In this document: positions 1 to 43,211 of the stretch, in pieces
Numbering within the stretch: position 1 is the first letter of the stretch
Layout: every line of letters starts with the position of its first letter
From: Dictyophora rubrovolvata
Taxonomy: Eukaryota; Basidiomycota; Agaricomycetes; Phallales; Phallaceae
Assembly: GCA_029959195.1 (NCBI GenBank)
Contig: CP114126.1
Span: forward strand, 1,178,001-1,242,000
Length of the DNA stretch: 64,000 nt
Direction: 5' to 3'
Translations under genes and position numbers: made by a program
The notes under the pieces: generated by a model
Seen by the model: only the letters and a program-made list of their open reading frames with translations
The model's database searches: none
Told to the model about the DNA's origin: nothing

Positions 1-177
1 TAAATGATAAAAGGCGTTCTAGTACATATCATATTATTGTGATATAATTCCTTTTTTTACATTTATGTAAAGAAAAAATACATGATGTTGATCACAAAGT
101 GGCTCGTGCAGACGATACATTATTATGTGTGAATATTCTTTCAAAGATTATGAGTGCTCATATATTCGTCATTGGGG

Positions 178-514
178 TCACGAGTCCGCCTTGTTTATTT
201 GTTCGTTCGAGTGTTCGTTGGTAGTTGAATTATCCGAATGCTATGACGGGGTTATTAGACGCAGCCAGTTCCAAGCCCAGAATATAGACACTAACCTTAT
301 TTCCTTCAAGTTCTTCTATCATTCCTTCCAAGTTTTCTAATAACTTGTCCAGCTTATCTTCAACGCCTTGAGCAACGTCACCCGCTTCGTCGAGTTGTCG
401 GAGAAGCACAGCCAAGTTGTCCGCCGCAGTTTCGTCCTTTACAGATGCATTTTGAAGAACATCCTGAAGGAATTTGACTTGCCGAGATAGGTCAGACTCG
501 TCTTTTGACGACAT
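178..514 (-). CDS. Small coiled-coil protein, left-arm copy
   Basis: Two exons on the minus strand, 514-296 and 240-178, joined by a 55-base GT-AG intron with a CTAAT branch site. The product is about 93 residues, acidic and almost entirely helical by composition, with heptad-like leucines through residues 8-70 and a polar Asn/Ser/Glu-rich tail supplied by exon 2. I do not recognise a family. The gene lies directly downstream of the FHA gene in the same direction and is repeated, with the same protein and splice sites, in the right arm. Both copies therefore look translatable. A role as a small subunit of a larger complex is only a guess from its shape. Confidence 0.7.
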
Positions 515-792
515 ACACTTATCGCCGCCTTCAAAGGGTTGCAGTCGATATTAGGATATTAGAGGGCTGGCCTCGCGCAACTAGCGCCGGGGGGAAAGAA
601 AGTTCCTGCAGTGCCAGCGGTGAACTGGGTAATGATTATAATATTTACATGTAGAGATCCGGGTTCATAAGAAAATAACTGAAGTAGAATGCATATGAGA
701 GTGGTGTGGAACTGGGGATATAGAAGTGACTACTGGAAACAGTTGAAAAGATATAATAAATATAGCCAAAAAAAGATGGTTCGAGATGTTGT

Positions 793-2887
793 CTATTCTT
801 TTGCTCGATAAACGACAGCGGCGACTACGCTTAAAACGAGTACACTGATGGCTGTTGATACGGAAGTCATAGGCTACAATTGAATAGAAATCAGTACTGT
901 GACATTTACGAGCAATGAAGAACAAGACGTTCATACCACTTGTCGCTTCGCTTGAGCATCGACTTGAATTTCTTGGATGGCCTTTTGACGCATGTCTCGT
1001 GTCTCTTTCAGACCATTCTCCAAGCTTCGCAAGCCATCTTCAACACTCCGGAAACCACCTTCTAATGTTCGAAGACTTTCCTCAAGGTTCTTGTGTCCAC
1101 CTTCTACATTCACAATGCGGGACTCCCATTCCTCGAAGCGTGTACCCCATTCCGAGTGTAAAGCTGACCATTGTTTGATGAGGTCAAGGATCGGAGGTTC
1201 AGCGGCGTAGAGATCATTGGCGTATCCGTTCTCGAGTTTAGGTTGAACTGGGGGATCGGGCTTTTCGTCTTTTCTAGCTTCTGCAGCGACAGCCTCGACT
1301 TTACTTTCCAGCGCGGAGATCTTGGTCTCTAGAGATAGAATGATATTCTCTGTAGAGGCTCGCTGTGCTTGCAGTGCTCTGGAGGTAGAAAGAGCGTTTT
1401 CTAGTTGTTCCGACAGTGTATCAAGCCGATTTGTGACGTCGGATTTGAATGTATCCGTTATCAGAGCAGGATGATGGTCTTCCCGGTGCCGTTGCGTTGG
1501 TTCTGGTGTGTGCGGCCGGTTACCGTTCACGAGCTCCTGTCGTTCCCTTTGCAGAAGTTTATCACCTTCCTCATCATCATTGTCTTCATGTTCTGGTGTT
1601 ACAGTCGTAAAACTCTTGGTGTCATCGTCGTCTGCGGGATCATGCTTCTTCTCCTCGATATAGTCTCGCAAACTAGTAAACTCCCTTCTCATGGTATCGT
1701 ATTCAGTAGTAAGGTCGTTGAGAGCTCTTAGTTTCTCAACATGAGAGGATAGTGTCGTTTGTGTTTCCGTTAGTTGTGCTTGTAACGATGCGATAATGTT
1801 TTTGTCCGGAGCTTGAATAGAAAAAGGAGCAGCATTCTGAGGCTGAGTTATCTGGGGTGGCACTACAGGATCGGGGCGCACGGGAGGGATCGAGAGCGGA
1901 TAATTCTGTATTGGGCCAGGCTAAATAATATAACGGTCTAGCCCCTTTGAAAACCATTGATAGAAAAATAAAAAAAGCATACATTGTTACCACTCAAAGT
2001 ATCATTAATATCGTTCATTTGCTCGCTAAGTCTATTCAGCTCCTGACCGGTCTCTCGGCTTTGAATTATTCCATTCTGAAGCCTTGATAATATATGCTCG
2101 AATGTCAATCCTGTTTTAGGACGACCAGCGGGCGCCCCCATGCTTCCTAAGCCAGCAGAATTGACATTGCCTGTAACAGCTGGTCCCGAAACGAGCGCTG
2201 TGGGTCTTCGTTGAGTTCCGTTAGTCACAGACATGGGAGGTGGAAAGACCACGGGTGCATCTTCAGGTGTTAAAACACACGCTACGCGTGCTGCAACCTT
2301 GTGGTGAACGATCGTTTTGTTGTCTTCACCAACAATATCGATACCAAATTCCTAAGGTTTCAAGTCACATTTATTTCCTTTGGGATATTTAAAATTGCTC
2401 GTCTTACAACAATATCGTCTGTTTTCAGTTCAAAAGCTTGAGACTCGACGCCTTCGGGTGATAACCGCTCGCCGTTGATGAAGGTACCATTGGAGCTTTT
2501 CACGTCCTTGATGAAGATCTAGTGCGCAAAATAAAAGCCCAAGAACTGATCCAGGTTGAACAGACCGGTTACCTTTGATTCTTCTTCCCATACTTCCGCA
2601 TGCTGCCTACTTAAAACCTTAGAATCGAAATAGCCATTTCGTTCTCCAGGCGTCGTCTTCGCGTTAGTTTGGCGGCCAATTTTAACGCGTTGGTTCAAGT
2701 GGATATATTTTGGAATAAACGTATCATTTAATGGGAACAGTGCTAGAGCCGGAATGGGTTGCGTTGAGGTCAGGAATGGTGTAGGGGCAGGCATCGGTGC
2801 AGGCATCAAGGCTGGCCTTTCGGAGGATGTGTGACTGAGTGAAAGTACGCTGGTTTCTTTTACATAAGCGTGACGCGTTACGTTCAT
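793..2887 (-). CDS. Tail-anchored FHA-domain protein (FAR9/FAR10, VPS64, SLMAP type), intact copy
   Basis: Five exons on the minus strand (2887-2573, 2518-2408, 2351-1983, 1920-937, 873-793), all joined in phase 0, give about 619 residues. After a Pro-rich N-terminus comes an FHA domain (about residues 45-165) with the hallmark GR, SRQHA and SSNGTFING motifs, split by two introns. A long acidic coiled-coil region follows, and the last exon encodes one hydrophobic segment ending in RAKE, a C-terminal tail anchor. This order is that of fungal FAR9/FAR10/VPS64 and animal SLMAP, the ER/nuclear-envelope anchor of the STRIPAK phosphatase-kinase complex that reads phosphothreonine on partners. Family assignment is by domain order. 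The right-arm copy at 37430-39494 is broken, so this is probably the working gene. Confidence 0.85.
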
Positions 2888-3981
2888 GAACGGATAAGTA
2901 AATTCCCGTAGCCTGTCACATTCGAATTTCGTTCAGTTGCCGGCAATTGAAGTTCTTGATTCTGCTTGAAAGGGGATGAGATTTCACGTATGTACTATGT
3001 TATGCGGTTCCGCAAAACAATGGAAATGTTTGGCAGGTTCGAAAGAAAATGATAAAATAACATGAGAAAGAAGAAATACGGAAGGTATCCAAAGGCGCGA
3101 TGTGGGATCCGTGCCCCAGGCAATTCACATTTGTGGTGCTAACTTCGTTTCCATCACTTTCCGGTTCATGTTCATGTTCATGTTCGAAAGGTGTCCTTGG
3201 AGGAGTCAATGTCAATAAACAATGTTTATGGTTAGCAGGGACTAATAGAAGATCGCTCTGAGGGCGAGGAACTTCCAGAAGAAGAGGCTAATGATGCAGC
3301 AGAAACAGATCGTGGAACGGTAGATCCGACTCATAAGCTAGACTGACGTCGACGAATAGCAAGACGTAGACCTTGTAACGACATGCGTTCGTTCGCATAC
3401 CACCTCTTTCTCTCTCGGCGGCCTGGAGAGAAGCGATAGCCTTGGACAGCAGATCTTGCGTGGCCTTCCCTGCAGGTAGACAACGCTGGACAAGGCATGG
3501 ATAGCGCTTATTCATGCTTTTGGTGGAAGTTGCGTTGCTGAGTCTGTTCCCGTTCGCAACATAGTTCCCACATAAAGGACACAGTGCGCTGTACAAATCC
3601 CGGAAAGCAGTCCACGAAGTGAAAGTTGATAGGCTAGAAGGATGGCCTAGGATGTCCCAGAGTATGTGAAGATAGGCTGCCGTCGCGAAAGACGGTGCGC
3701 TGAAAAGCCGGCGGCGGAGGAGGCGAACCAGACGTGGGAGAAATTGCCAAGAAAGAGTTGTAAAACCTTATCCCGCAGTGTGAGATGCCAATCTTGAATG
3801 GATTTGATGATCCCTCTTCCAACTTAAAAAGCCAAGAATTAGCATATTGGTAGGAATGACTAGTTGTTGAATAATACTTCCAAGACCACCACACGTCGAA
3901 TAGCGATAATAGCGATAAACGTTCGTGAACCATAATGAGCAAATAGGAAAGCGGAGGAGCAAAACACAACAGGGTTATGAA
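2888..3981 (-). other. Arm-specific spacer between FHA and HNH genes, with gene-like debris
   Basis: About 1.0 kb (2888-3912) is absent from the right arm, where only about 87 unrelated bases separate the two genes. On the minus strand one frame is open from about 3765 to 3365 without a stop and reads through a CPLCGNYV motif into a Lys/Arg/Ala-rich helix. A further open stretch at 3215-3100 has a HEHEHEHEPES repeat. No start codon or convincing splice set joins them, and I do not recognise the protein. It could be the remains of a gene lost from the other arm, or exons of an unrecognised one. The remaining 70 bases (3913-3981) are HNH 3' sequence shared with the right arm. Confidence 0.45.
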
Positions 3982-4956
3982 CTATTCAGTCGCGAACTCT
4001 CGCAACCTGTCCACCAACATGAGCTCAAATTGTTCTCGGCCAAGAGGCGCTTCTCGAAGCTCTCCCATGATATCGGAACCAGGAGGATAGTCATGTTCAA
4101 AAATTGGCTCTCCCGCCCCTCTCATGTTGGCAAAGACACATTGTCGGAAGTGCCATCGGAGAAGCTCGTCGGGCACATGGCGCGGGTCTTGAGGATCACG
4201 GCAAACAGGATCCAGGGTTCTTCCATCCAGCCCCCAGTTATCATGTTGGAAAACGACAATCTTATAGCTGTCCTTTAAATAATTGAATATAATTGTTGCG
4301 CACGAAAAGCAGAAGAAGAACTTGCGTCAGGATTGACCGACATTATATAAGTATCCCATACTGAGTGCAAATCCCCTCGCATGAGAAAACCGTTCTGGAC
4401 TGAGTTAATATTTGATTGCCCAGGAACGGTGTCGGTGATCCATCTCCCAAAATTGTTCTGCTCCCACACATTTTGGGCACCGAGGGGAAAAATGTGGGCA
4501 GCCCGGAAGCCAACCCATTGCCCTAACTGTGCTCCCCCATTGACGAGCCCTGAGAAAACACATCTGCCGTCACGGTTACGAACTGCTTCCCGGAACCCAG
4601 CATCTCTTGGGGTGTTGCTGAAAGTAATGGTTCTGCTAACCCAAGCTTCATTATTGACATTGATATACCCTGCGCAATAAAGGCATTCAATAAATGTCAC
4701 CGGCCGGTAAAACAAACAAGTTACCGTCACAGTAAATGTCATAATCTCCATGCTGTAATTGATGGTCAGATCTAGTGACGATGTGGTGGTCTAGCCTCCT
4801 TTCGATACGGTATCCGACTTGAGTGACAATCAGAATTTCTAGCATGTCTAAAAAATTATTTTCTGTGATGGAGCCATTTTGAAGCAGGCCGCCCAAGGGA
4901 GTTGCAGGGTTCATAGCATCATAAAAATGTACGTTCCTCCCCAAGGAACGAGACAT
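3982..4956 (-). CDS. HNH_2 endonuclease-like protein, left copy
   Basis: Three exons on the minus strand beginning at the ATG at 4956. The first ends at a GT donor within Asp-Gly and the second at a GC donor (GCAAGT) after Asn-Pro-Asp. The protein, about 260 residues, has the fungal HNH_2 layout: a variable N-terminal region, then CVFSG followed by the FRAAHIFPL histidine motif, QNGFL and LHSVWD, and a C-terminal part with DELLRWHFRQ and GAGEPIFE. Such proteins are present in many copies in mushroom genomes, with unproven activity. The HNH core suggests a metal-dependent nuclease. I see no frame break. It is the inner end of the left arm and a diverged paralogue of 36318-37277. Confidence 0.85.
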
Positions 4957-5075
4957 GCCGAATATTTGACAGTGATATTTGGGTTCGCGGTAATTTAAGT
5001 CGTCGAGTCCCCAATTACGTAACGGATCGTAAAGTGAGATCAAAAGATAGCCGTCCAGCGAGAATTCGAACATCG

Positions 5076-6620
5076 ATTAAAGGAGACAAAACTAGCATTT
5101 GCTGAGCAGGGCTTGAATGCCGAACTCTACTATGAGAACAAGAACTTTGCTCGAAATGTATCTCTGGTCCCGACTTCTGCTATCACAGGTGAGGGTGTTC
5201 CGGATATGATCATGTTGTTGGTCAACCTCACACAGCAGCGTATGAGCGACCGACTAATGTACCTGTCCGAATTGGAGTGTACTGTCTTGGAAGTCAAAGT
5301 GATTGAAGGCTTTGGTACTACAATTGATGTTGTTTTGTCGAACGGTATTCTAAGGGAAGCTTGAATGGACCGATTGTTACGAACGTTCGTGCTTTGCCAA
5401 CACCTCAACCTTTAAGACAAATGCGTATCAAAGTACGTGGATCTTTGTTTTCACTTGCCGCTTTCTCAGATGCTGACCGTCCCGTAGTCGGTGTATGTTC
5501 ACCATAAAGAGGTTAAAGCCGCACTTAGTGTCAAGATAGTCGCCCCGGATTTAGGAAAAGCTATCACTGGTTCACGGTTAATGGTTGTAGGACCCGACGA
5601 TGATGAAGACGAGCTTCGAGACGAGGTCATGTCGGATCTTACAAGTTTTCTCAACACTATCGATAAATCAGGACAAGGCGTTTATGTTCAAGCAAGTACC
5701 CTCGGCTCTTTAGAAGCGTTGTTAGATTTCTTGAAATCCAGCAAAATCCCCGTTTCTGGTATCAATATCATACCTGTACACAAACTAGATATCATGGGTG
5801 CTGCGACTATGCTAGAGAAAGCCAAGAATTGGCGTGTATTCTCTGCTTCGATGTTTCTGTCGACAAAGAAGCCGAGAAACTAGCGGAAGAACTTGGCATT
5901 AAATTATTCAAGGGTAGTACGTATCAACCGTGTTTATGGAATATCTTGTCGTAACTGAAAGCTCATTACAGCGGACATTATTTATCACCTGTTCGAACAC
6001 TTTCACTGCTTATAACGCTGAGATTACAGAGGCCAAACGAAGAGATGCAGCACCTCAAGCAGTGTGGCCATGTCGTCTCAAGATTATTCAAGCTTTCTGT
6101 AAACGTGATCCAATTATTCTTGGTGTGGATATCTTTGATGGATCACTGCACGTTGGAACTCCACTATGTGTAGTTAAAACTGATCCGCAGGCAAACCAGA
6201 AAGATGTAATTCGTTCGGGGAAGATGTACATACGTCTTCTGTTTGCCACACACCAGAAGGTACTGATCATAAGCCAGTACTTCGTTGGAAATCAACTACA
6301 AATCAATGGAAGTAAGTTTTTTTTCTTGATAGTGATAGCGATTCGTCTACTAATTAGGGGCATGCTAGATTGTGAAGAAGTCTCAGCAAGGCAGTGGTGT
6401 TGCTGTTAAGATCGAGCATGCAGTTTACGAATCGGCCAAAATGTTCGAACGACATTTCGACGAAAAAGACGATATATTAAGTCAAGTGACACGACAGAGC
6501 ATTGACGTTCTGTTTAGATTCAATTTTATCATGATACCTGCTGATATCAGCCCTCGCAGGAATCATTCAGGACGGACGTTTCAGCGGAGGAATGGCAATT
6601 GATTAAAAACTTGAAAGCAG
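5076..6620 (+). pseudogene. Decayed 3' fragment of translation initiation factor eIF5B
   Basis: Reading plus-strand frames in order gives recognisable eIF5B: the end of the G domain ([25 protein letters not shown]), domain II, the GPDDDEDEL stretch, domain III and most of domain IV (RDPIILGVDI, QGSGVAVKIEH). The N-terminal half, including the P-loop, is missing; the match begins abruptly about 120 bases from the HNH start. The coding frame shifts near 5355, where about 22 bases are lost, again near 5835 and near 5990, and the normal C-terminal end is not reached. eIF5B is an essential 60S-joining GTPase, so a complete gene must exist elsewhere. This is a dead partial copy left at the edge of the duplication. 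Confidence 0.9.
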
Positions 6621-7387
6621 TAAGCACCGTTTCCTAAATCCTAACCACTAGGGGCTGTCGTAGTACGGGGTGGGGGACCTTTGAATTTCATGCGAGCATG
6701 TTCAACCTGGCTGTTAGCGTCTCGGAATACCTTAAGTATATTTATGTAACTGATTTTTATATCATGTATCTTATATGCACTATTCCCCAAGTTGTGGAAG
6801 CTTTGTTCTTCGACAGCCGGATGAAAGAACGGGGCGAAATTCCGAGTACATTGTCCTATGTGATCGAAATACCCCATGAGAGCAAAACAATAATTGCGGT
6901 AGTGATGTGCCGTGTTTGACGTGAATAGCATGAAAAAAAAGATCAAGACTATTGCGTTGGCGAGACATTGTGAAATTTGCTTGAAAAGCGAGGCCGTCAT
7001 AGAAAGAAAACTTCCAGGTCTTCATTATCGTAGTCACTAGGATCAGGTTTATCAGTCCAGATCCTCACCTTGAAGTTTTCCTTGATGTATTGGGAGTTTC
7101 TCAAGAAGTTCTTGTATTTCTCGAAGGTTTCTAAAACCATCAGGAAGAGGCACAATCATAACTATCGGATCACGTCAGGCTGGTGGTAGCTGACGACGAC
7201 GAGTCAGACCTTTTACCAAGTTTATAGTCTTGCTAATTCTAAAACATTTTCCGTCTAGGCAATCTTGCGAGAATGTATTGCACCAAGGTCTTTCGCTTCG
7301 AGAAGATACAAATAGTAGGGTTGCCTCAAGGCAAAGCTCGAAAGCCAACTTGGTTGATTACGTCAACGATTTCCTCCAAGTACCTTT
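6621..7387. other. Region without a complete gene; possible exon remnants
   Basis: A plus-strand stretch 7045-7130 reads as RFISPDPHLEVFLDVLGV and so on, and 7260-7391 reads as a further open segment ending in a TGA that overlaps the next ATG. They could be the last exons of a truncated upstream gene, but I could not find a start or name a family. The rest (6621-7040) shows nothing convincing. Confidence 0.3.
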
Positions 7388-8742
7388 ATGACACAGGATC
7401 ATCCTGAAGGAGAATGGCACTCGATACGACCTTGGACACATCGTATAGCATTTCAGGTTCGAGAAATAACGTCCGTCTCAATTACTTTTATTCTGCGGTC
7501 GGTCGTAGCGTCGCACAATGAAACTTTGGCTACCCTGGGCGAGGATTCAGATGAAGACGATACACGAGTTCCGACGATTTTGGACGCTCTGAATGGTGGA
7601 CTGGTTGTTAAGGTCAATGATAACCATTGGCAGCCTGTGATAGTGAATGTGGATGATAATGAAGAAGCCATTGTCATTGTGTACGGTCTTCATCCGAGGA
7701 AACGATATGAAATTCAGCTACACGTTGTAGCTTGCGATGAACATATTATCGAAGAAATAAGCACTACAGCAACCAATGGTACTTTTTGTATTTAAGATTT
7801 TTCTTTGTTTCTCAATTATCTTACGCAGAAGTTGTTCCCGTGGCACCTGTGTCCACAATTCCTCCAGAAAACATCCCGGCAACTCTGACACCACCTATGA
7901 CTCCGGTGAGATCAAGTCCACCGAGAACTATCAATTCAGAAGAGCGTGCCCTACAACTTCGAAAGCAAATATCGTTACTCGCGGCAGAACGAGAGGATCT
8001 TGTTACACAGCTAAAGATCACCCGCCGCGACTCCCAGCGTGCTGAAGCTGCACTCAAAAGCGAAATCGAGTCTCTTCGACGTGCGTCTGAAAAGCACTCC
8101 ACTGGAGAACATCGAAGTCGTCAAAAAGTCCTCGCCCTCCAAGAAGCAGTCAAACAGTCTACTGCTGCAGCTACAGAAATGGAACAAAAGGCCAAAGGGA
8201 TTGAAGATATCTTATCTACACTAAACCGACGGGCCAAAGAAGCCCAAGAACTTCATGATCGGACAAATCATGAACTGGAGCAAAGAAGAAACGAGCTGAG
8301 AATGTCCCTCACTGACGGAACTAAAGCCGTTCAGAACCTACAAGGGGAGCTCAACTCCATTTGCGCCAAGATTGACAAGCTAAACGGGAAGAAAGACAAA
8401 CTTGAAAAAGAAACCATACCGCAGTTAGAAGAAAAGTTGAATGAACTACGAAATTCAGTGGAAACACTGGAGATGGACACGCAAAAAAGTGACGAGCGGT
8501 ATGACGAGGAATCGCAAAATGGGTGGAGTTCAAAGAACTGGGTACCGCCCATACAACGGCCTTCTCCACAACAACGATCCAGCTATCCGCCTTCCGTCTC
8601 CTACGGCTCAAATAATGCTCCCACTCGCCCTGGTTTCCATTCCCCGCATCTTTCGGATTTTACTTCATACGGGGCACCAAACAATGCCGCATCATTATCA
8701 TCGCACATCCCCAAAAGAGATACAGGAACGGATCAGTCCTAA
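7388..8742 (+). CDS. Fungal protein with N-terminal beta domain and long coiled coil
   Basis: Two exons, 7388-7778 and 7829-8742, joined by a 50-base GT-AG intron, give 434 residues. Residues 10-125 form a beta-rich domain (WHSIRPWTHRIAFQ, then an acidic GEDSDEDDTRVP loop and a VIVYGLHPRKRYEIQL strand pair resembling a fibronectin-like fold). Residues 165-360 are a long, heptad-repeating coiled coil rich in Glu, Lys and Leu, and the tail is Pro/Ser-rich and disordered. This layout resembles fungal proteins annotated as AcrB-like ubiquitination-network proteins, but I place it there only tentatively. The start is the first ATG of the open frame. It converges on MBP1. Confidence 0.72.
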
Positions 8743-9086
8743 CGTCTGTCTCCTGATACTAAGCCCTGATTACACTCAATGTTATATTGTATTTATTATT
8801 ACATCACAAACTTATTCTCTCAGTCTTATGTTCGGCAAGGTGCCCAGTTGTATCGGAAAGTTTGCATAAATACTGTATATCATTCTTGTAACTCGACACA
8901 TTCTTTTTTTTTACAAACTTATAATATCATCTAGTTTTTTGAACCTGTTCATAACTATTTTATCTTTCAGCCCTAACGGCGATGCATTGTTATACATTAA
9001 TTAATATGCAGCAAGAAATTGACACAATAGAATGAGCACGAGTCGACCGAGAAAAAAAAAGGGGAATGTTACACGACTGGACTGGA
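8743..9086. other. Convergent intergenic region
   Basis: AT-rich 3' flank shared by two convergent genes. It has several T/A-rich tracts suitable for 3'-end formation on both strands, including a T8 run near 8905 and an A-run near 9052, and no coding signal. Confidence 0.6.
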
Positions 9087-11456
9087 CTATCCAACACTAG
9101 TGGTTACACTACGTTGCGGTTTGTTCCACAACATTTCCGACGTTGTTTCTTCCGACTCCAAAGTCTAACGGTGACATTAGCAAATGAACCACTTAGAAAT
9201 GAAAATCGTACTTCAAGGAGTAGACCAAGGACATTATCGACTTCTGGCGGCGCTACACCGCAACCAGCCCCAATCAACCGTCGATATTCAGGCATACGTC
9301 CTCCTGTGCCCGCCTCAGCTTGCTGTTTGATCAAAGCTTCGAAATTCTTGGCCCTGATGGCGGGCTGCTGAGATAATTCGGCGCGAAGAGCATTACATTC
9401 TTTCTCCAACTCCATCGGATCAGAGGAGATGTCTCTATACAATTCCATTAGATCTTGATCTTCTTCTTCACTTAAAGCAGCCGATGATCCATCCAATGAC
9501 CCTCCTCTTCGGATATAATCTTGTTCACGTAATACTTCATATTGTAGCCACTTCTCCCATCCAAGTTGGTAACGCCTTCCCATCTTGAAGTTGAGGGTTT
9601 GCTCCAGTTCGTGTAAACGCAACTTAGTCGCATCTAAATTGCTTGCCTGTTTTTTTAATGCGTCTATTGCCTTTTGACTTTCTGAAATTTCTCCTTCAAT
9701 GTTATTGAGAAGAGCGTGAGCCTGGTTCAAATCGCGCTCCTTCTCTTGCAATTCCGCATCAAATGATTGCGCAAGACTATCCAACATACTTGCCATATCA
9801 TCAACACATGCCGTACTGGCCCGTTGTGCTATGACAGAATGGTGCAAAGGCAACTTTTCATAGCCGTATACACCTGACGGACCTACGCCATTCCCGTTTG
9901 GTTGATGCCCAGTCGCGGCTTGCGCGTTACGATAAGACATGGCACCGACGCGCGATGACGGCACAGGTGAGCTTCGGAATCGTTCGTCTTCAAGAATATA
10001 ATCCTCCGCAGATTTACCTTCATCATTCGCAATCTTTGGATCGGCGCCGTGGTCTATGAGTAACTTGACAAGCCGCTTGCTGCGACACCGAGCAGCAAGT
10101 GTTAGAGCAGTTTCCCCTTCTTTTGACCGAAAATTGACGATATCAGCAAGTTCGTTAGGGAATTCCGACAAGCGACTGAGGATCGTTTCCATGTAGTACC
10201 GGGCCGCGTGGGTTTTGCCTTTTGTCATAGCCAATTCAACAACATGATGGAACACCGTCCTGTCCGACTTATCGATATTCAGCGTTGACCGATGAAGAAG
10301 TTCATATAACTCAGGAAACTTGCGGATGTCGTAATTGTTGCTGAACATGACTGATCGCATGAGTGGTGTTTGACCTTCATTGTTGGTGCGGAATATATCT
10401 CCGCCAACTGTAAGGAGAAGCTTGACAATACGTATACGACCCATGGCGCATGCCCAGTGCAGAGCGGTATGTCCGTCTTCGTCGATAACCATGTTCGCAT
10501 CGAAACCTTGCGGTGGGCTGATCAAGAACGAGGGTGCTTGTGTGCTTTCCGAGATGAAATACTCCAACAACTTGTCCGCATAGTCAATGCGCTCGACTTC
10601 TGGTTCTTCTCCTTCAAATAACTGATCTTGCTTTACTTGGAAACGAGAAATGGCATTCTTGGGTCTGGCGGAGCTCGCAGCAGCTCGAGAGCGAGTGGTG
10701 CGCTGAGGAAGAGATGCAGACATTCCAACATCTTCAGCCGACTGGTGAGAAGCGTCACGAATAGGGGATGGTGTTCTGGAGGTGGCCGAAAAGCTGTTTT
10801 TTGGGGAACTGGATATCGAACCGTCCTCAGAACGGAGAGGGCTGGGACTTCGTGATACTGTAGGGGACTCTGGTCCTTTCTTCGACGAGCGCAAGGACAT
10901 GGGCGTTTCTACCGGCTCACGTATACGTTTCGGACGGGCTGGTGCGTTGAGATGCTTTGGGGCCGCGGGTGGGCTAGAGGTCGCTTGGAATTCAATGAGG
11001 GGTTTCATGAGATGGTCAATATTATGTTGCTTGGCCAGTGCTATGCCCTTTTCGAGAGGAATCCAAGTGCCTGTAATTAGAAATAGATCGTTAACAAAAA
11101 CTCCGGGAAGAGTTTGACCAAAGCCCTTACCTTGATACTTGCCATACCCACCCTGGACTTTCTGATGCACACCTTTCTGAACTTCTCGCTCCAAGACACG
11201 CGTTCTCTGCGGTTTATCAAATCCTGCAATCTTGAGGATTTGCGTCGCATTTAACCAAGAATCATCACGGCGCCGCATGACAGCTACGGACTTGACCATC
11301 CTTGAAGACTCATTAGATTACGGATGAAATAATGACCGCAGAACACCCACATTTCGTACACCGGAACCCCGCTATACGTTGCCTAAATGCCATTAGAATC
11401 GAAATCAACACAAAAAATACGGGTATGTTCACCTTGAATATTTGCGTGTCAGGCAT
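9087..11456 (-). CDS. MBP1: APSES/ankyrin cell-cycle transcription factor, MBP1 type
   Basis: Five exons on the minus strand: 11456-11433, 11382-11351, 11300-11131, 11070-9212 and 9164-9087. The model restores the family N-terminus (short leader, YSGVPVYEM, then VAVMRRRDDSWLNATQ), and the APSES DNA-binding domain runs through KVQGGYGKYQ|GTWIPL once a 60-base in-frame intron is removed. Ankyrin repeats follow (HTALHWACAMGR, GETALTLAAR), then a coiled-coil C-terminus. The last short exon gives ETLESEE, which is usual for the family. MBP1 pairs with an SWI6-like partner in MBF and drives G1/S genes from ACGCGT sites. Exons 1, 2 and 5 lie outside the long open frame and are easily missed. No defect is seen. 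Confidence 0.93.
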
Positions 11457-32139: not shown

Positions 32140-32262
32140 TTTGCGTCGTTGTTGTGAAAAGTGAGCGGTGCTAGTGAGCGGTGGTGTTCATACAGAGGTT
32201 TCGCCGTGTGACGTCATAGGTTAAGGGTGCAATTAGTTTGATCCCGACTTGCGTTGGTGAAA

Positions 32263-32280
32263 GGTTGGTTGGTTGGTTGG
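32263..32280 (+). repeat. (TTGG)4 short tandem repeat
   Basis: Four and a half TTGG units between two genes. Confidence 0.85.
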
Positions 32281-32359
32281 AAATTTTTGACGAAATAAGA
32301 AATTTATAAAATACGTATGCAATAATTATAAATTAAGTATTACCGCAGCCTTTTTCTTC

Positions 32360-33652: not shown

Positions 33653-34455
33653 TCCACGAACCCTGTTTTTTTTTTTTTTGCTGTTTCCTAGTTTTTATAT
33701 CATCGGACTTGTGCCCCGCGGCTGGGCCTTATAGCCGCGGCTTAGTAAGTTTGGAATGACTCGGGGCGAGGTTGATTGAGGTCGAAGGGCGAGGCGTGTT
33801 CCAAAGTTCCTCATATGGTATAGAATTGAGCTTGTGTCGTGAGATTTTCCGACGCGTTTCAGTCGATTACAACTTATTTTAGCTCGTGCGTTTCAATAGG
33901 GCGACAAGGCCATTCTCATCGGAGGGTCGCAGGCTTCGAGTACTTAAATTTAGGGTGGTTAGATCATAGGGAGTGGGCGCTTGTCGCTGGGCAGTGCAGA
34001 CGGTTTGCAGTGTGGCCAAAGATGAGAACAGTGGGAGAATCGCCTGGTATATCGGTGTCGACGCGTGTCCAGCTATAGGACGGGGCCCAATGACTTGGTA
34101 GGAATCGACCAGAAGAAGTTACGTAAAAAACCATATCTCACTGGCAAAAAACACGTTGCCAAGGGTAAGAGATCCTTCAAATGATAAATTGTTGTTTGGC
34201 AGATCGACCCTTTCACGGCCACGACATGAGTATCATCGAAGACTGGGTGCCGTTTGCGTGTCATTTTCTTTTTTTTTAGAAAAGGAAAGAAAACTCATGC
34301 GCAGAACCTTTTTGCTTTTCGCTTCTGACGATTTTGATTTGTTTTCGCGTGTTGTTGTTGGCTGTGCACTCAGAGATCTAGTGAGCGGAAGTTTAAAAAA
34401 AAACTTGAAATCACAGTGTCGATTACGTAAGAAATACCTCAGTCTCGCCGTCATC
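33653..34455. other. Divergent intergenic region upstream of uS7m
   Basis: Contains a T15 tract near 33666-33680 and an open plus-strand frame that joins the uS7m frame upstream of its ATG. I see no start, family motif or import signal in that extension, so I treat it as leader or promoter. Confidence 0.5.
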
Positions 34456-35320
34456 ATGTCGCTTTTTCTTCATTTGCGACGACGACTAGTAAAACCCAAT
34501 CTGCATACGCCAGCAGTGCCTCAGCCTCAGCCTCGCCTCCCCGGATACTATTATTGTTTTCGACAACCCCAACAGCCTCTCAACTACTCCACGATATCGC
34601 ACGATGACTTGCAGGCATCGACAGACATTCCGCCAGCTTCAGATCTTTTTCCGGTTCCGCCCCCGCCAAATCCAGCTCTTCCAGCATTTGCACCATCTGG
34701 ATCAGCTCTAAGTGCCTATGCAGCTTCATCCGTATCACTGACAGCTCTTCCTACTCTCGATATTCCACCACCCACAGACCCTCTGCTATCTTACATCGCA
34801 ACGCAACTCATGCGGGATGGTAAACGCCATACAGCCACACGTCGTGTTTCCAAAATTCTACTACACCTCTACGCCCTGACACGCAGTTCACCATTACCGC
34901 TTCTCCGAACGGCCGTCGAACTCGCATCCCCATCTATTCGTGTCAAGTCTCACAAGTCGGGGGGCAAGGTTTTACAAAAACCCGTGCCCCTGTCAGAAAA
35001 GCAGCGGTCATTTTATGCAATCAGATGGATTCTCAAGGCAACCGGTGATCGAAAAAAAAAGATGATAGAAGTTAATAAGCGCAAGGTTAAAGTTCTCCCA
35101 AAAGGGACAGTCGAAGAACGCTTTGCACGCGTTGTCATTGCTATACTAAACGCCAATCCAAATGAACCGAAAAGTAACTCTGTTCTGGCGAAGAAATTTG
35201 CTGTGCATGAATTGGGCATGATCAATAGGTGCGCATTATTCGTGTGTGGAGTCGTTTTGTTGTAGTTAAACTCTAACGCTCTATAGATCGAATGTAGCTG
35301 TAAAGCGTGGAAGATCGTAA
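34456..35320 (+). CDS. RSM7: Mitochondrial small-subunit ribosomal protein uS7m (RSM7)
   Basis: Two exons, 34456-35228 and 35287-35320. The N-terminus (MSLFLHLRRRLVKPNLH) is a basic mitochondrial presequence, followed by a Pro/Ser-rich spacer. The S7 domain starts at TDPLLSYIATQLMRDGKRHTA and includes the basic RVKSHKSGGKVLQKPVPL strand and the helix LLRTAVELASPSIR. The short second exon supplies RSNVAVKRGRS, the conserved end of fungal uS7m; without it the protein would end in unrelated intron sequence. uS7m binds the 3' domain of the small-subunit rRNA and nucleates the mitoribosome head. Confidence 0.92.
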
Positions 35321-36317
35321 CCACTTCCCCGTAATCAAAACATAATAGGATATTTTTATCCTGAAAGCTTAATATCTCTAGATTACTATATATATAAGAC
35401 ACTGCCTCGTCCTCTCACGGCGCTAACTCCACTCCCGTAGCTTACAACGGAAGAGTCTCCGGGTAATATAACATCCGTATCAAAGCAAGGTACGTCTATT
35501 CTCATTGCTTCATCGGGCTTCAGCTTCTGATTTTTAAAATAAGACTTCCTTCACATGCTGCCATGCACGCTGCAACTGGTCTGCGCGCGCAAAGATTAGA
35601 ATTTGAGTGACACTTGCCCACAAATTTGAACGAGAAAAAAAGAGATGATAGCAAAATCGTGCATGCGTTCAAGTAAGCTAAGTGCGAGGAGGCATCAACG
35701 CAATAGTGGGCTGAGGCTGTCCAATGATTTAATTCGACGATGGGACCTGGGTCTGAGGCCTGAAGTGAACAGTCATGTCGGTGCTGGGAACTGAAAAAAG
35801 AAACTGCTGATCGGACCCTTTTCATACTCATGGACATAGAAGACGTCGAAGACTCTTAGTCCTACCCAAAGTTTGTCTATTCATAAACTAATCCTAACGA
35901 TGCTTCCCAAGTCCAATTTCAGTTTACAAGTTCCTATCCATTGAACGTCTTGTCAAGCTTATTCTAATATTTCATTACGGACACGCAGTATATGTCTGAT
36001 TCGTGCGAGATCACCCTCCTGCATTTGTATATTTGAAATAACGATAAAAAACAGATTAAAACGACCCGGCGTTACTATCTCGGCTACTTTTTTTGCCAGT
36101 TTTAGCGTTTTAGGCCCAAAACAAATTACTGCTGGGATTACTCCTAGCTTGCTTCTGAATCATTGCCAACGTCATTATGTTGAGCCATCGATTCGGAGAT
36201 CAACGAAATTATCTTTTCAAGTGTGAAATTTTGTATCCATGCGTAATCGGGGGCTCGCGGAAGGTCACAGTTGTGACACCGCGACAACCCAAATCACCGT
36301 TCTTCCAATCTTCGTAA
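35321..36317. other. Intergenic region before the right arm
   Basis: About 1 kb with no gene I can support; open frames on both strands lack family motifs. It ends with a 57-bp repeat (36177-36233) also found at 43342-43400, and with the HNH 5' flank. Confidence 0.5.
36177..36233 (+). repeat. 57-bp direct repeat, copy 1, just outside the right arm
   Basis: About 88 percent identical to 43342-43400; the core TTGAGCCA.CGATTCGGAG and GATCAACGA are shared exactly. The pair brackets the HNH-FHA-coiled-coil-SDA1 block. Confidence 0.8.
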
Positions 36318-37277
36318 TGTCTCGTTCCTCGAGGAGAAACATACGTTTTTATGACGCTACGAACCCTGCCACTCCCCTCGGCGGCCTGCGTCAGCACGGC
36401 TCTGTCACGGAGAGAAATTTTTTAGACATGCTAGAAATTTTGATTGTCACTCAAGTCGGATACCGTGTCGAAAGGAGGCAAGACCAACACATCGTCACTA
36501 GATCCGACCATCAATTGCGGCACGGAGATTATGACATTTACTGTGACGGTAATTTGTTTGTTTTGCCGGTGATATAATATTAAATGACTTATTGCGCAGA
36601 GGATATTAATGTTAATGACGAAGCTTGGGTTCCTAGAATCACTACTCGCAGCAACTCAGCAAGAGATTCCAAGTTTCGGGACGCAGTCCGTAGCCGTGAC
36701 GGCAAATGCGTGTTTTCGGGTCTCATCAATGAGGGAGCGCAGGATGGGCTGTGGTATGGCTTCCAGGCCGCCCACATTTTTCCCCTCAGTGCCGGAAATG
36801 TGTGGGATCAGAACAGTTTTGGAAGATGGATTACCCACACCGCTCCCGGACAATCAAAGATTAACTCCGTCCAAAACGGTTTTCTCATTCAAGGGAGTTT
36901 GCACCAGGCATGGGATAGTTATGCGATGTCGGTCGATCCTAACGCAAGTTTTTCTTCTGCTTTTCGTGCGCAACATTTGTTTAAAGGACAACTATAAGAT
37001 TGTCGTTTTCCTAAATAACACCTGGAGGCTGGATGGAAGAACACTGGATCCTGTTTGCCGTGACCCTCAAGACCCACGCCACGTGTCCGACGAGCTTCTC
37101 CGATGGCACTTCCGACAATGTGTCTTTGCCAACATGAGAGGGGCAGGAGAGCCGGTTTTTGAACCTGACTATCCTCCTGGTTCGGATATCATGGGAGAGC
37201 TTCGAGAAGCGCCTCTTGGCCGGGAACAATTTGAGCTCATGTTGGCGGACAGGTTGCAAGAGTTCGCCACTGAATAG
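36318..37277 (+). CDS. HNH_2 endonuclease-like protein, right copy
   Basis: Three exons from ATG 36318 (MSRSSRRNIRFYDATNPATP), with a GT-AG intron inside the Asp-Gly-Glu junction and a GC-AG intron (GCAAGT) after Asp-Pro-Asn, giving about 258 residues. HNH_2 landmarks are CVFSG, FQAAHIFPL, QNGFLIQG, LHQAWD and DELLRWHFRQ. It is intact and a paralogue of 3982-4956, with about 87 percent identity in exon 1 rising to about 95 percent in exon 3 and near identity in the 3' flank. Both copies keep the histidine motif and open frames despite many replacements, which suggests selection on each or recent divergence. Confidence 0.85.
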
Positions 37278-37429
37278 TTCATAACCCTGTTGTGTTTTGC
37301 TCCTCCGCTTTCCTGTTTGCTCATTATGGTTCACGAACGTTTATACCTAAGCTGGGTCAAGGTCGATACTTGCGGTCTCCATCCGACGCAGGTGTATTCG
37401 TTTTTCCACACGACACAACTATGCCGTTC

Positions 37430-39494
37430 ATGAGCGTAACGCGTCACGCTTACCAGCGTACTTTCACTCAATCACACATCCTCCGAAAGGCCAGCCTTGA
37501 TGCCTGCACCGATGCCTGCCCCTACACCATTCCCGACCCCAACGCAACCCACTCCGGCTCTAGCACTGTTCCCATTAAATGATACGTTTATTCCAAAATA
37601 TATCCACTTGAACCAACGCGTTGAAATTGGCCGCCAAACTAACGCGAAGACGACGCCTGGAGAACGAAATGGCTATTTCGATTCTAAGGTTTTAAGTAGG
37701 CAGCATGCGGAAGTATGGGAAGAAGAATCAAAGGTAACCGGTCTGTTCACCCTGGATCAGTTCTTGGGCTTTTATTTTGCGCACTAGATCTTCATCAAGG
37801 ACGTGAAAAGCTCCAATGGTACCTTCATCAACGGCGAGCGGTTATCACCCGAAGGCGTCGAGTCTCAAGCTTTTAAACTGAAAACTGACGATATTGTTGT
37901 AAAACGAGCAATTTTAAATATCCCAAAGGAAATAAATGTGACTTGAAACCTTAGGAATTTGGTATCGATATTGTTGGTGAAGACAACAAAATGATCGTTC
38001 ACCACAAGGTTGCAGCACGCGTAGCGTGTGTTTTAATACCTGAAGATGCACCCGTGGTCTTTCCACCTCCCATGTCTGTGACTAACGGAACTCAACGAAG
38101 ACCCACAGCGCTCGTTTCGGGACCAGCGGTTACAGGCAATGTCAATTCTGCTGGCTTAGGAAGCATGGGGGCGCCCGCTGGTCGTCCTAAAACAGGATTG
38201 ACATTCGAGCATATATTATCAAGGCTTCAGAATGGAATAATTCAAAGCCGAGAGACCGGTCAAGAGCTGAATAGACTTAGCGAGCAAATGAACGATATTA
38301 ATGATACTTTGAGTGGTAACAATGTATGCTTTTTTTATTTCTCTATCAATGGTTTTCAAAGGCGCTAGACCATTATGTCATTTAGCCCGGGCCAATACAG
38401 AATTATCCGCTCTCGATCCCTCCCGTGCACCCCAGATAACTCAGCCTCAGAATGCTGCTCCTTTTTCTGTTCAAGCTCCGGACAAAAACATTATCGCATC
38501 GTTACAAGCACAACTAACGGAAACACAAACGACACTATCCTCTCATGTTGAGAAACTAAGAGCTCTCAACGACCTTACTACTGAATACGATACCATGAGA
38601 AGGGAGTTTACTAGTTTGCGAGACTATATCGAGGAGAAGAAGCATGATCCCGCAGACGACGATGACACCAAGAGTTTTACGACTGTAACACCAGAACATG
38701 AAGACAACGATGATGAGGAAAGTGATAAACATCTGCAAAGGGAACGACAAGAGCTCGTGAACGGTAACCGGCCGCACACACCAGAACCAACGCAACGGCA
38801 CCGGGAAGACCATCATCCTGCTCCGATAACGGATACATTCAAATCCGACGTCACAAATCGGCTTGATACACTGTCGGAACAACTAGAAAACGCTCTTTCT
38901 ACCTCCAGAGCACTGCAAGCACAGCGAGCCTCTACAGAGGATATCATTCTATCTCTAGAGACCAAGATCTCCGCGCTGGAAAGTAAAGTCGAGGCTGTCG
39001 CTGCAGAAGCTAGAAAAGACGAAAAGCCCGATCCCCCAGTTCAACCTAAACTCGAGAACGGATACGCCAATGATCTCTACGCCGCTGAACCTCCGATCCT
39101 TGACCTCATCAAACAATGGTCAGCTTTACACTCGGAATGGGGTACACGCTTCGAGGAATGGGAGTTCCGCATTGTGAATGTAGAAGGTGGACACAAGAAC
39201 CTTGAGGAAAGTCTTCGAACATTAGAAGGTGGTTTCCGGAGTGTTGAAGATGGCTTGCGAAGCTTGGAGAATGGTCTGAAAGAGACACGAGACATGCGTC
39301 AAAAGGCCATCCAAGAAATTCAAGTCGATGCTCAAGCAAAGCGACAAGTGGTATGAACGTCTTGTCCTTCATTGCTCGTAAACGTCACAGTACTGATTTC
39401 TATTCAATTGTAGCCTATGATTTCCATATCAACAGCCATCAGTGTACTCGTTTTAAGCGTAGTCGCCGCTGTCGTTTATCGAGCAAAAGAATAG
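37430..39494 (+). pseudogene. Broken copy of the tail-anchored FHA-domain gene
   Basis: About 98 percent identical to 793-2887, with the same exon layout. An 11-base deletion after the codons for MSVTRHAY shifts the frame at the N-terminus, and a 19-base deletion near 38420, between two short CACCCC-like repeats, shifts the frame at the start of the coiled-coil exon. FHA-domain replacements (Glu to Lys, Thr to Met, Thr to Ile) also occur. The first shift could be bypassed from a later ATG (MMPAPMPAP), but the second cannot, so the coiled coil and membrane anchor are lost. A truncated FHA-only protein is possible. Confidence 0.85.
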
Positions 39495-39767
39495 ACAACA
39501 TCTCGAACCATCTTTTTTTGGCTATATTTATTATATCTTTTCAACTGTTTCCAGTAGTCACTTCTATATCCCCAGTTCCACACCACTCTCATATGCATTC
39601 TACTTCAGTTATTTTCTTATGAACCCGGATCTCTACATGTAAATATTATAATCATTATCCAGTTCACCGCTGGCAGGAACTTTCTTTCCCCCCGGCGCTA
39701 GTTGCGCGAGGCCAGCCCTCTAATATCCTAATATCGACTGCAACCCTTTGAAGGCGGCGATAAGTGC

Positions 39768-40104
39768 ATGTCGTCAAAAGACGAGTCTGACCTATCTCGG
39801 CAAGTCAAATTCCTTCAGGATGTTCTTCAAAATGCATCTGTAAAGGACGAAACTGCGGCGGACAACTTGGCGGTGCTTCTCCGACAGCTCGACGAAGCGG
39901 GTGACGTTGCTCAAGGCGTTGAAGATAAGCTGGACAAGTTATTAGAAAACTTGGAAGGAATGATAGAAGAACTTGAAGGAAATAAGGTTAGTGTCTATAT
40001 TCTGGGCTTGGAACTGGCTGCGTCTAATAACCCCGTCATAGCATTCGGATAATTCAACTACCAACGAACACTCGAACGAACAAATAAACAAGGCGGACTC
40101 GTGA
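39768..40104 (+). CDS. Small coiled-coil protein, right-arm copy
   Basis: Exons 39768-39986 and 40042-40104 encode the same 93-residue protein as 178-514, with a matching intron and branch site. It lies between the FHA pseudogene and convergent SDA1; the gap to the SDA1 stop is 165 bases. Unlike its neighbour it has stayed intact. Function is not recognised. Confidence 0.7.
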
Positions 40105-40269
40105 CCCCAATGACGAATATATGAGCACTCATAATCTTTGAAAGAATATTCACACATAATAATGTATCGTCTGCACAAGCCACTTTGTGATCAACATCAT
40201 GTATTTTTTCTTTGCGCCGATAGATGGAATTATATCACAATAATATGGTATGTACTAAAACGCCATTTA

Positions 40270-43211
40270 TCATTTACTCCTCTTAGCCCTGTCAACATGA
40301 GCGCGCAGCTTTTTCTGTTTATCCCGCAACGAAGCCTTCTTCTTCCCCTTCACAGAATTACTCGCCAAAATCATCATAATAGGCTTATTTCTGGCCTTCT
40401 CGCGATTCGTCGAACTGCTCGCATTCTCCTTATTCTTCTTCCCCCGCGCAGAACCAAACTTCTCTCTCCCTTCCCGTCCTTTCTGGATCGAAGCCATCCG
40501 CTCTTCATAACTCGCTTTCGCCTTTTTACGAGGCCCGAGTATGTCATTCTCAGACACGAAATATTCACTCAGGTTGCCTTGTTCGCGGCCTGACGATATC
40601 GATTTTTTGTTCGCTTCTAGTGCGGCCAGTTTACGTTTGGTAGCTGAACCTGCCCCAGATTGTACGGCTTTTGATGCTGCTTCGATTTTCAGGTCATTGA
40701 GTAATGCGAAATCAGCGGGAGTAAGAATCTGAATTTGAACAAGAAGAAAAATAATCGTTAAACCAAGACTGTTCAGGCAATACTGCTGAAGGATGGCTTA
40801 CTTTGGTAGTGGCAAGTGACGATACCCGTGCAGCAGCTTCGGTCTGCGGCTGCAAGTCCGTCGTCGTGTTCATAGCTTCAACTCCAGCATCGTGTTTTTC
40901 TTCTTTCCGTTTCCCTTTCTTGGATGATTCATCTTCACTCTCGCTAATGTAAATTTCTTCTTCTTCATCGGACGACACATCAATCCAGCCTTCAGAACTG
41001 GAATCGGACGACTCAGAGTCAACCTCCCAGCCCTCCCAATCTTCTTCTCCACCTTCATCTTCATTCGCCCCGTCTCCGTCGTTACCTTCAGCGCGAAGTT
41101 TCTCAAAGTGAGCTTCCAGTAGCTTTGAAAAAAAGACTACTTCAGTATTTTGTTTCCAAAAAAGGAGATGAAAGCAGATAATTACCTCCAACCCTTCTAT
41201 GTCAACAGCAGCGTCCGCCACGTGTCCATAAGCGGGTGGTTGAACCTCTTTCTTCGACATACTGACTTCTTTACCCTTTCCAATTCCAAACATTAGCACA
41301 AACGCACGCGATAAAGAACTTATCAAACAAAGCATAACATACCCTTTCCCGACGCTTCAACATCCCAGGATTAACCTCCCTATAAAGCTGCAACAGACCT
41401 CTCGAAGCGGTCAAAACCCCTTTATCCCTACTCTTCCGATACTCAATCAAATCTCCCAAAAGGTCTTCTTCCATACACCACGGCTGTCGTCTGCAAACTT
41501 CGCGTATCGAATTTAAACCGGCCGCGATAACTTCGGGTCCTACACCAGGATGAACGAACTCGTTCGCGATTTTTCGGATGACGGGTGTCACTGCATCTGG
41601 GGGCGTGAGTGAATGGACGGATTGGGCTAGCGAGACTAAGATTGTTGGAATGCGGAGTTGGTGGTATGTTAGGTATCTTGTGTAAGGTTTTTGAGATGAT
41701 AGGGCCAAAAAAAAACAACTTTGTAACGTACTTGACGATGTAGGTATAGAATCCTAATATGCATAACTTATGAGCACCCATTATGCGACTGATTAGTTGC
41801 ATTAATAATATCTTATGATCTAATGAATATCGCTTGTCTTTAAGAATAGTTAGATGGATCCCATAAAAGAATGAAAACACACAAACCATAACGGTTCAAA
41901 TTGTCGTACAACTTTTCTCCAAAAGTTTGTGGGTCGTGTAATAACTGCAACGCAGGAAAATTGGCAGTTGCATGCTCTGCATTTTTCTCTTTACGTTTCT
42001 AAAAACGATCGGAGGTCAGCAACCTTACTGTTCAACTTGTGGATGCTCTTGCCTTTTTCGCAGCTTTCATACTTTTGGCTAATTTCTTCTCACCACTCCG
42101 TGTCTTTTTTTTAACTTCATGCCGGTGTTGTAAGCCTTTCGTGTCTGGAACCTAAACCAAAGAGATATATATAAGCAAAAAGGGGGTAACGTCATGCAAG
42201 CACTAACATCATCTTCATCACTGTCTTCCTCTTCTTCTTCCTCGCTCCCAAGGAAAAAGTGAAGTGAAGCATTTTGAACTTTAGCATGAGGGTGAAAACA
42301 TCCAAGTGCAACAATAGACACCGTCTTGGCATCATTCCTAACGAAAGCACGAAAAAAAAAAAAACGCCCCGTCAAACCAACCCGATTCCACTCGAAAAAG
42401 GAAACAAGAATTATCTCACCAAACGCCTTTCTTCCACAACTCTTTAGCCATAACAACAGCCCACATAGCTTCATCCGAATTTTGCTTCGTACTGGGATTA
42501 ACAGCCGACTTGCCAGTGCCAGCACCAGCACTGCGTAATTTGCCTTTATCACCCAACACTTCACCGTCCATTCCACGTTCTACCATTCCGAATAACATCG
42601 TTTGTACTGCTTTGTTTAGTTTGTGGTTTTTGGTTTTCATGTTTGCTGTTTTAATATCCGTAAAAATTGTTTTTCGGATGAAAGCTCGGAGTGTGGATGA
42701 TGTCGTGCGAGGGAGGAGGGGGAAGAGAGTGCGAAGCAATCTGTAGTATTCACACTTTTGGTTAATATAACTGAGGGAATACGTTGAATTTCCTTACTCA
42801 ATGGATGTAATAACATTTTTGTTGCGCAAAGTTACGAGATTCTGAACAAGAACTCTTCGAGTATCCGGGTTCAGCGTCGAATAGCTTTCCAACAAAAGAT
42901 TTGAAAGATGATTGGGAAAATCAGCTGTCTCCTTCGGAAAACACTGTGCAACCTTAAGAAGAAATGGATTTAGCCAATGACAAGATACAGACAAAGCTGG
43001 TCCAAACCTGAGCTATAAAAGAAATAAGCTGCCTAAAATGTTGCGCCTGTTCGTCTGGATTGATTTGAAAAATTTTCCGAATACTTTCGTAGTGATTCCA
43101 TTGCTGTAGAAATTCTTCTTTGTATGCAGCAGGATCTCGTTTTACTAGATTTTGAAGTTGAGGGAGATTTGAGGTTAACAGTGCCCCTCTTGGAACATGT
43201 TGTCGCTCCAT
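40270..43211 (-). CDS. SDA1: Ribosome biogenesis/actin-cytoskeleton protein SDA1
   Basis: About nine exons on the minus strand from ATG 43211 to the stop at 40272-40270. The order is the full SDA1 protein: [33 protein letters not shown] (landmark [12 protein letters not shown]), [29 protein letters not shown], an acidic [13 protein letters not shown] loop, [54 protein letters not shown], a second acidic region, [13 protein letters not shown], and a Lys-rich tail ending [16 protein letters not shown]1 is a nucleolar protein needed for 60S export and G1 passage. No break seen. Its last codons belong to the inverted duplication. Confidence 0.92.

What the first reader, a model, noticed from the sequence alone, without database searches (positions are those of the whole stretch)
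1..40276. Inverted duplication whose divergence falls away from a crossover inside HNH paralogues
The sequence shows two arms (1-4956 and 36318-40276, inverted, 31 kb apart). Hand counts give about 87 percent identity in HNH exon 1, about 95 percent in HNH exon 3, near identity in the HNH 3' flank, and about 98 percent through the FHA and coiled-coil genes to the SDA1 stop. A single block duplication would have even divergence. The gradient suggests that two older inverted HNH paralogues served as the homology for a later event (break-induced replication or gene conversion) that copied everything outward from one HNH gene. The left arm reaches the window edge, so it may run to a chromosome end.
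Basis: partly seen in the sequence, partly recalled or inferred. Interest (0 to 1): 0.78.

Follow-up and report, generated by a model that had tools for sequence, protein, structure and literature searches.

The report
Small inverted gene copy, sharp edges
In what is almost certainly a stinkhorn mushroom chromosome, a 3-kb stretch carrying an FHA-domain gene has an inverted copy about 35 kb away inside a cluster of older HNH-nuclease genes; the moved copy looks intact while the copy at the native place beside SDA1 seems to be decaying, an ordinary kind of local duplication rather than a copy running to a chromosome end.

Summary
The two inverted arms exist, but the flanks change the picture. 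The FHA/coiled-coil/SDA1-end block is a sharp-edged inverted copy (left -65..2893, right 37424..40342; 50 mismatches of 2,919). Its identity ends 66 bases left of the window, not at a chromosome end. A third HNH gene (A) lies just outside the window, so the left block sits between HNH-A and HNH-B inside a degraded eIF5B copy. The HNH genes are older (dS B-C 0.30, A-C 0.12; FHA about 0.02). The HNH 'gradient' is present in all three HNH pairs, is not monotonic (exon 2 lowest) and fits protein constraint (exon 3 most conserved in 5 of 6 outgroup comparisons). B and C show no conversion tract. In Clathrus, FHA and SDA1 carry tags three apart on contigs of equal length, which points to the right arm as native. 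That copy has a 19-bp deletion that shifts the frame at the shared splice sites, and 9 of 11 polarisable amino-acid changes. This looks like a dispersed segmental duplication with patchy gene conversion among nearby HNH paralogues. Homology through HNH-linked DNA at one end is possible, not shown.

The parts
1..2893 (-). Left (derived) copy of the FHA block: last 73 bp of SDA1 including its stop (begins at -65, outside the window), small coiled-coil gene, FHA/coiled-coil/TM gene and about 85 bp upstream of it
   Evidence: blastn and MAFFT against 37424-40342, 50 mismatches of 2,919, sharp ends
793..2806 (-). FHA-domain gene, left copy, intact 592-aa frame over five exons
   Evidence: exon-by-exon translation; PF00498; 76% to Clathrus columnatus
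296..514 (-). small coiled-coil gene, first exon, left copy
   Evidence: only weak Pfam hits below cut-off
2915..3825 (-). remnant of gene X and its flank, between the FHA block and HNH-B; related to C10:1551595-1553352
3982..4956 (-). HNH-B gene, three exons
   Evidence: Pfam was run on HNH-C only
5041..6813 (+). degraded eIF5B copy; an 81-bp piece of the same gene lies at -146..-66, left of the FHA block
   Evidence: IF-2 hit below its cut-off
36176..36233 (+). 58-bp repeat just upstream of the HNH-C unit, copy of 43342-43400 upstream of SDA1
36317..37277 (+). HNH-C gene (DUF7881 + HNH_2), three exons
37373..37419 (+). 47-bp stretch between HNH-C and FHA that matches the X region of unit A
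   Evidence: match to -1762..-1718 at 85%; a second short stretch beside it aligns to A
37424..40342 (+). Right (probably native) copy of the block
   Evidence: SDA1-FHA linkage in Clathrus inferred from locus tags
37500..39494 (+). FHA-domain gene, right copy; 19-bp deletion shifts the frame if the shared splice sites are used
40270..43211 (-). SDA1 gene, full length at the right arm by a hand-joined exon model; only its last 73 bp are in the left copy
   Evidence: PF21638; PF05285 above cut-off in one exon piece and below it in another
48993..51294 (.). second inverted pair: copy of -4401..-2138, which lies next to the X-HNH-A unit

Best explanation
A dispersed, inverted segmental duplication of about 2.96 kb. 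Its source is the SDA1-(small gene)-FHA locus at 37.4-40.3 kb and its target a cluster of older HNH paralogues at -1.3..5 kb, inside a degraded eIF5B copy. Shown: exact block limits, orientation, a left edge cut inside SDA1 and directly followed by an 81-bp eIF5B piece, HNH paralogues older than the FHA pair, an intact left FHA frame and a right frame broken at the shared splice sites. Inferred: the native site (Clathrus locus tags, SDA1 stub). Inferred and uncertain: how it was copied. Most likely a break in the left cluster was repaired by synthesis on the right locus; the FHA side was perhaps guided by X-HNH DNA that lies beside FHA in both places, and the SDA1 side was closed without visible homology. 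Patchy gene conversion has acted among the HNH copies. The confidence given is for the duplication, its direction and the age order; the copying routes overlap with the rivals and are rated there.
For: Block limits -65..2893 with 40342..37424; interior flat (collapsed mismatches 100-2800, KS P = 0.29). Source side: SDA1 full at right, 73 bp at left; Clathrus FHA is Clacol_001972 and SDA1 is Clacol_001975, both on contigs of 3,719,891 bp. Directly adjoining 81-bp eIF5B piece. Ages by dS. The left copy keeps the frame; Clathrus has residues at the place where the right copy lacks 19 bp. Of 15 amino-acid differences 9 changed on the right, 2 on the left, 4 unplaced (9 of 11, two-sided P = 0.065). 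FHA lies on the X side of HNH in both arms. Conversion patches A-C P = 0.009 and A-B P = 0.001. Chr10 is one assembled sequence and 134 kb here hold no N.
Against: No homologous crossover can be seen at either end of the block. The X pieces kept in the two arms do not overlap: B keeps the part related to C10:1551595-1553352, the right arm a piece known only through its match to unit A, so the shared FHA-X-HNH order is itself inferred through A and the C10:1553k copy. Block edges are more diverged than the interior: within 150 bp of the ends 16 of 284 versus 34 of 2,635 mismatches (P = 1e-5), with clusters collapsed 11 versus 32 (P = 0.002); at 100 bp the difference is not significant (P = 0.14). 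This fits an older duplicate homogenised later. Raw mismatches cluster beyond chance (0 of 2,000 shuffles reach it), collapsed ones do not (619 of 2,000). With Hysterangium as a second outgroup one of the 9 sites (column 11) would change sides.
Confidence: 0.6

Rival explanations
1. Older block duplication with later homogenisation: SDA1-end, FHA, X and HNH were inserted together (about 5.1 kb) into the eIF5B copy when HNH-B and HNH-C separated; gene conversion between the inverted FHA blocks has since kept those alike while HNH drifted apart and the right arm lost most of X.
For: One insertion explains both eIF5B borders (-66 and about 5041) and FHA beside X-HNH in both arms; the right arm keeps a short X stretch; block edges are more diverged at 150 and 200 bp; conversion does occur among the HNH copies.
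Against: HNH-C is nearer to A than to B, so B and C are not simple sisters; the last 150 bp at the right edge hold only 5 mismatches (list), far from HNH-like divergence; conversion in the FHA pair itself is not shown.
Confidence: 0.3
2. One reading: an HNH-B/X end invaded the right locus at X-HNH-C and copied outward through FHA into SDA1, then ended by joining to eIF5B rather than at a telomere.
For: FHA lies on the X side of HNH in both arms; older HNH paralogues and a younger block; no homology seen at the SDA1-side join.
Against: No B-C conversion tract in HNH (P = 0.35); the 3' end of HNH-B is not as close to C as FHA is (P = 0.0009); about 1 kb at left has no counterpart at right, so the invasion point would lie in sequence now deleted.
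Confidence: 0.2
3. Chance insertion of a copied fragment by end joining, with no role for HNH homology.
For: Sharp ends and a direct join to the 81-bp eIF5B piece; the 58-bp SDA1-upstream copy at the HNH-C border looks like a filler.
Against: Landing next to an X-HNH unit on the same side and in the same relative orientation as at the source would be a coincidence; the source edge lies four bases from the X stretch.
Confidence: 0.15
4. Haplotype or assembly artefact: two alleles of a dikaryon laid in one chromosome.
For: The strain was isolated from fruiting-body tissue (that it is a dikaryon is my inference), and 98% identity would suit alleles.
Against: The copies have different flanks on both sides; Chr10 is a single sequence from a hifiasm assembly of a 15-kb library, long enough to cross a 3-kb block; duplicated BUSCOs 0.34%; no N in 134 kb. 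Reads themselves were not examined.
Confidence: 0.05

Closest known systems
Segmental duplications by replication-based repair in yeast (Payen et al. 2008, PMC2518615; abstract and outline seen)
   Same: Duplicated chromosome segments attributed to untimely DNA synthesis, half by break-induced replication, the rest by template switching at microsatellites or microhomology; fusion genes at junctions
   Different: Here a 3-kb inverted copy seen long after the event; mechanism and enzyme dependence not testable
Foldback inverted duplications after a double-strand break (Al-Zain et al. 2023, PMC10622511; abstract and outline seen)
   Same: Inverted duplication
   Different: There a hairpin-capped chromosome is replicated into a dicentric one; here the copies are short, sharp-edged, 34.5 kb apart and internal to the chromosome
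Gene conversion between nearby paralogues (general knowledge, recalled)
   Same: Patchy identity; the HNH pairs A-C and A-B show it
   Different: Not shown for the FHA pair itself

Membership tests
Break-induced replication tract | Copied tract runs from a homology patch to the chromosome end (recalled feature) | tested here: not met
   Identity ends at -65 with 1,178 kb of contig beyond
Break-induced replication tract | Homologous crossover at the start of the tract | tested here: inconclusive
   None in HNH-B/C; the adjoining 1 kb at left has no match in the right arm
Foldback inverted duplication | Arms meet at a short inverted-repeat turn (recalled feature) | tested here: not met
   Block copies are 34.5 kb apart
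Dispersed segmental duplication | Genomic block with introns copied to a second site with sharp ends | tested here: met
Ectopic gene conversion among paralogues | Runs of identity longer than chance | tested here: met
   HNH A-C P = 0.009 and A-B P = 0.001; B-C P = 0.35, not met. For the FHA pair inconclusive
Retrocopy | Introns lost | tested here: not met
   All four FHA introns are present in both copies
Transposable element | Multi-copy element with common ends | tested here: not met
   FHA block found at 2 places; HNH at 5 places, the two distant ones decayed by eye; the palindrome at the HNH-A end found at one place with up to 1 mismatch. The genome search gives lower bounds
HNH_2 (PF13391) with DUF7881 (PF25324) | Pfam domains above cut-off | tested here: met
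   HNH-C scanned: 47.1 and 85.5 bits against cut-offs 21 and 27

The most novel reading that the evidence does not exclude
The HNH genes, a DUF7881 + HNH_2 family whose listed relatives that carry an organism name are, Clathrus apart, ascomycetes, cut DNA locally. Repair of those cuts could make this neighbourhood a hub that repeatedly copies inverted gene blocks, moving an FHA gene to a new site while the native one decays.
Probability: 0.05. Interest if true: 0.6.

Novelty: new member of a known kind. Interest (0 to 1): 0.3.

Why it matters
It is a clear small case of gene relocation by inverted copying in which the moved copy looks intact and the native copy seems to decay. It also warns that an apparent divergence gradient across paralogues can come from protein constraint and from reading only part of a locus. 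The locus would suit a comparison across Phallus species of how older paralogues steer later duplications.

Tried and rejected
Rejected: copying to a chromosome end. A circle integrated by crossover in HNH: I looked for reciprocal similarity, A-C high at the 5' end and B-C high at the 3' end; A-C is the closest pair in 9 of 11 bins and B-C in none. A mobile HNH element with a fixed end: by eye all three units end near TACG, but the palindrome was found at one place with up to 1 mismatch, and I saw none in the two distant HNH copies. Homology of the 21 bp between HNH-B and eIF5B to flank C, flank A or eIF5B: none above shuffles. One single 15-kb inverted duplication for everything: substitution differences are unlike between pieces (second inverted pair 125 of 2,230; FHA 50 of 2,919; HNH B-C 149 of 1,087), though constraint differs too. 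Paper searches, listings only: Clathrus columnatus + genome, inverted repeats + gene conversion + segmental duplication + break-induced replication + fung, templated insertion + four terms, segmental duplication + yeast + microhomology + replication-based + Pol32, HNH + Tuber + expansion + fungal genomes + horizontal gene transfer, Dictyophora rubrovolvata/duplication/HNH, any two (488 papers, 8 listed). No listed title names this locus; I make no wider claim.

Results against my reading: edge divergence at 150 and 200 bp favours homogenisation, while the 100-bp test is not significant; FHA intron 3 is an exception to the even divergence (mismatches at 1918-1965); polarisation is 9 to 2 with 4 of 15 unplaced and two-sided P = 0.065. 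In one search the residues around the 19-bp deletion were left out (X placed there).

Full report
Where it is. The window is C10:1178001-1242000 of a 28,239,528-bp genome in 11 contigs. The lengths of C10 (1,814,427) and C9 (1,936,385) equal Chr10 and Chr9 of Dictyophora rubrovolvata Di001 in PMC10411574 (abstract, Materials and methods, and part 1 of 2 of Results seen). The paper's 11 chromosomes sum to 28,241,566 bp, about 2 kb more than the genome held. It used a 15-kb PacBio library and hifiasm; Chr10 is one sequence. Coordinates: window position = contig position minus 1178000, so 0 is the base before 1 and negative numbers lie left of the window.

The observation. Self-comparison confirms the two inverted matches. 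With 20 kb more to the left and 10 kb to the right, and later 40 and 30 kb, the FHA part runs only from -65 to 2893, paired with 40342 to 37424, with 50 mismatches in 2,919 columns and four gaps, all in the right copy (5, 5, 19 and 11 bp). Most introns and intergenic DNA are as alike as exons; FHA intron 3 is an exception. There is no approach to a chromosome end.

The flanks. Left of the block come, going outward, 81 bp of eIF5B (-146..-66, 91% to C10:1450631-1450551), a third HNH gene A (-1268..-148), a degraded gene X, and a segment (-4401..-2138) with its own inverted copy at 48993-51294. Right of the block come X sequence, HNH-B, and from 5041 more of the same eIF5B gene (to 6813; 752 bp of eIF5B are missing between the two pieces). 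So the left block lies inside a broken eIF5B copy between two HNH genes. At the right arm SDA1 is full length; between FHA and HNH-C, BLAST matched a 47-bp stretch to the X region of unit A, and the alignment shows a second short stretch. This X piece does not overlap the X kept beside HNH-B; the two are linked only through unit A and C10:1553k.

The gradient. Over HNH, B-C identity is 88% in exon 1, 80% in exon 2, 93% in exon 3 and 98% in 64 bp of 3' flank. The drop in divergence toward the 3' end is present in all three pairs (differences in 269 versus 818 sites: A-B 9 and 125; A-C 7 and 65; B-C 13 and 136), and the classes of variable sites do not differ between the two parts (P = 0.39). 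At protein level exon 3 is the most conserved part in 5 of 6 comparisons with outgroup proteins (C-Clathrus 71% versus 47% and 54%; Clathrus-Sphaerosporella 75% versus 53% and 54%); the exception is Sphaerosporella-Kalaharituber, 68% in exon 3 and 72% in exon 2. Constraint therefore explains much of it. Synonymous divergence is also lower in exon 3, on few sites, and the 3' flank is not coding, so some homogenisation is not excluded. A permutation test finds conversion patches for A-C (P = 0.009) and A-B (P = 0.001) but not B-C (P = 0.35).

Ages. dS is 0.30 for B-C, 0.26 for A-B, 0.12 for A-C, and 0.018 and 0.015 for the two main FHA segments (exons 1-3 and exon 4). The last FHA exon (dS 0 on 21 sites) and the small gene (0.043 on 48 sites) are too short to use.

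Direction. SDA1 is full length at right and a 73-bp stub at left. In Clathrus, FHA (Clacol_001972) and SDA1 (Clacol_001975) lie on contigs of the same length with nearly adjacent tags, while its HNH (Clacol_003444) lies on a contig of another length. The linkage is inferred from tags and contig length, not from a map. The left FHA frame is open for 592 aa; the right copy lacks 19 bp just after intron 3, and the shared splice sites then give a frameshift. Clathrus has residues at that place. Of 15 amino-acid differences, the left copy agrees with Clathrus at 9, the right at 2, neither at 4 (P = 0.065 for 9 of 11). By eye, an alternative donor 8 bases upstream could keep the right frame open; no call tested it, so the right copy is called decaying, not dead.

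Mechanism. The SDA1-side join shows no overlap in the alignment. On the FHA side both arms adjoin X-HNH DNA, and the source edge is four bases from the X stretch. That suggests that X-HNH was involved, either as homology for a later copying or because it was part of an older, larger duplicate since homogenised. Present evidence does not separate these, and I rate them close. Comparable products in yeast are described in PMC2518615 and PMC10622511 (abstract and outline seen).

Verdict. A real and tidy inverted segmental duplication with an intact moved copy. Of ordinary interest.

Noticed in passing
window 36317-37277: Among the 120 listed hits of HNH-C (615 found) the only basidiomycete named is Clathrus columnatus; the other hits that carry an organism name are ascomycetes to my knowledge (Pezizales, Lipomyces, Onygenales, Eurotiales and others), which may point to horizontal transfer. 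No tree was built.
   Followed up: no
window 51377-52594 and 60172-61220: A further inverted pair, 94-98% alike, carrying an Ac45/VOA1 transmembrane-domain gene.
   Followed up: partly
L036:3690-5639 and L032:1-1958: A calponin-homology (fimbrin-like, by eye) gene stretch is 94% identical to C10:1446001-1447958, next to the fuller eIF5B gene.
   Followed up: no
window 36942-36984: Intron 2 of HNH-C reads as a 43-base GC-AG intron; HNH-A and HNH-B have a counterpart, and the frame is open across it in all three models.
   Followed up: partly
window 36176-36233 and 43342-43400: A 58-59-bp direct repeat, one copy upstream of SDA1 and one at the HNH-C border; the own-genome search found these two only.
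   Followed up: partly
window 62117-64294 and L005/L036 (window 71958-74081): Tandem cytochrome P450-like genes at about 70% identity (named by eye).
   Followed up: no
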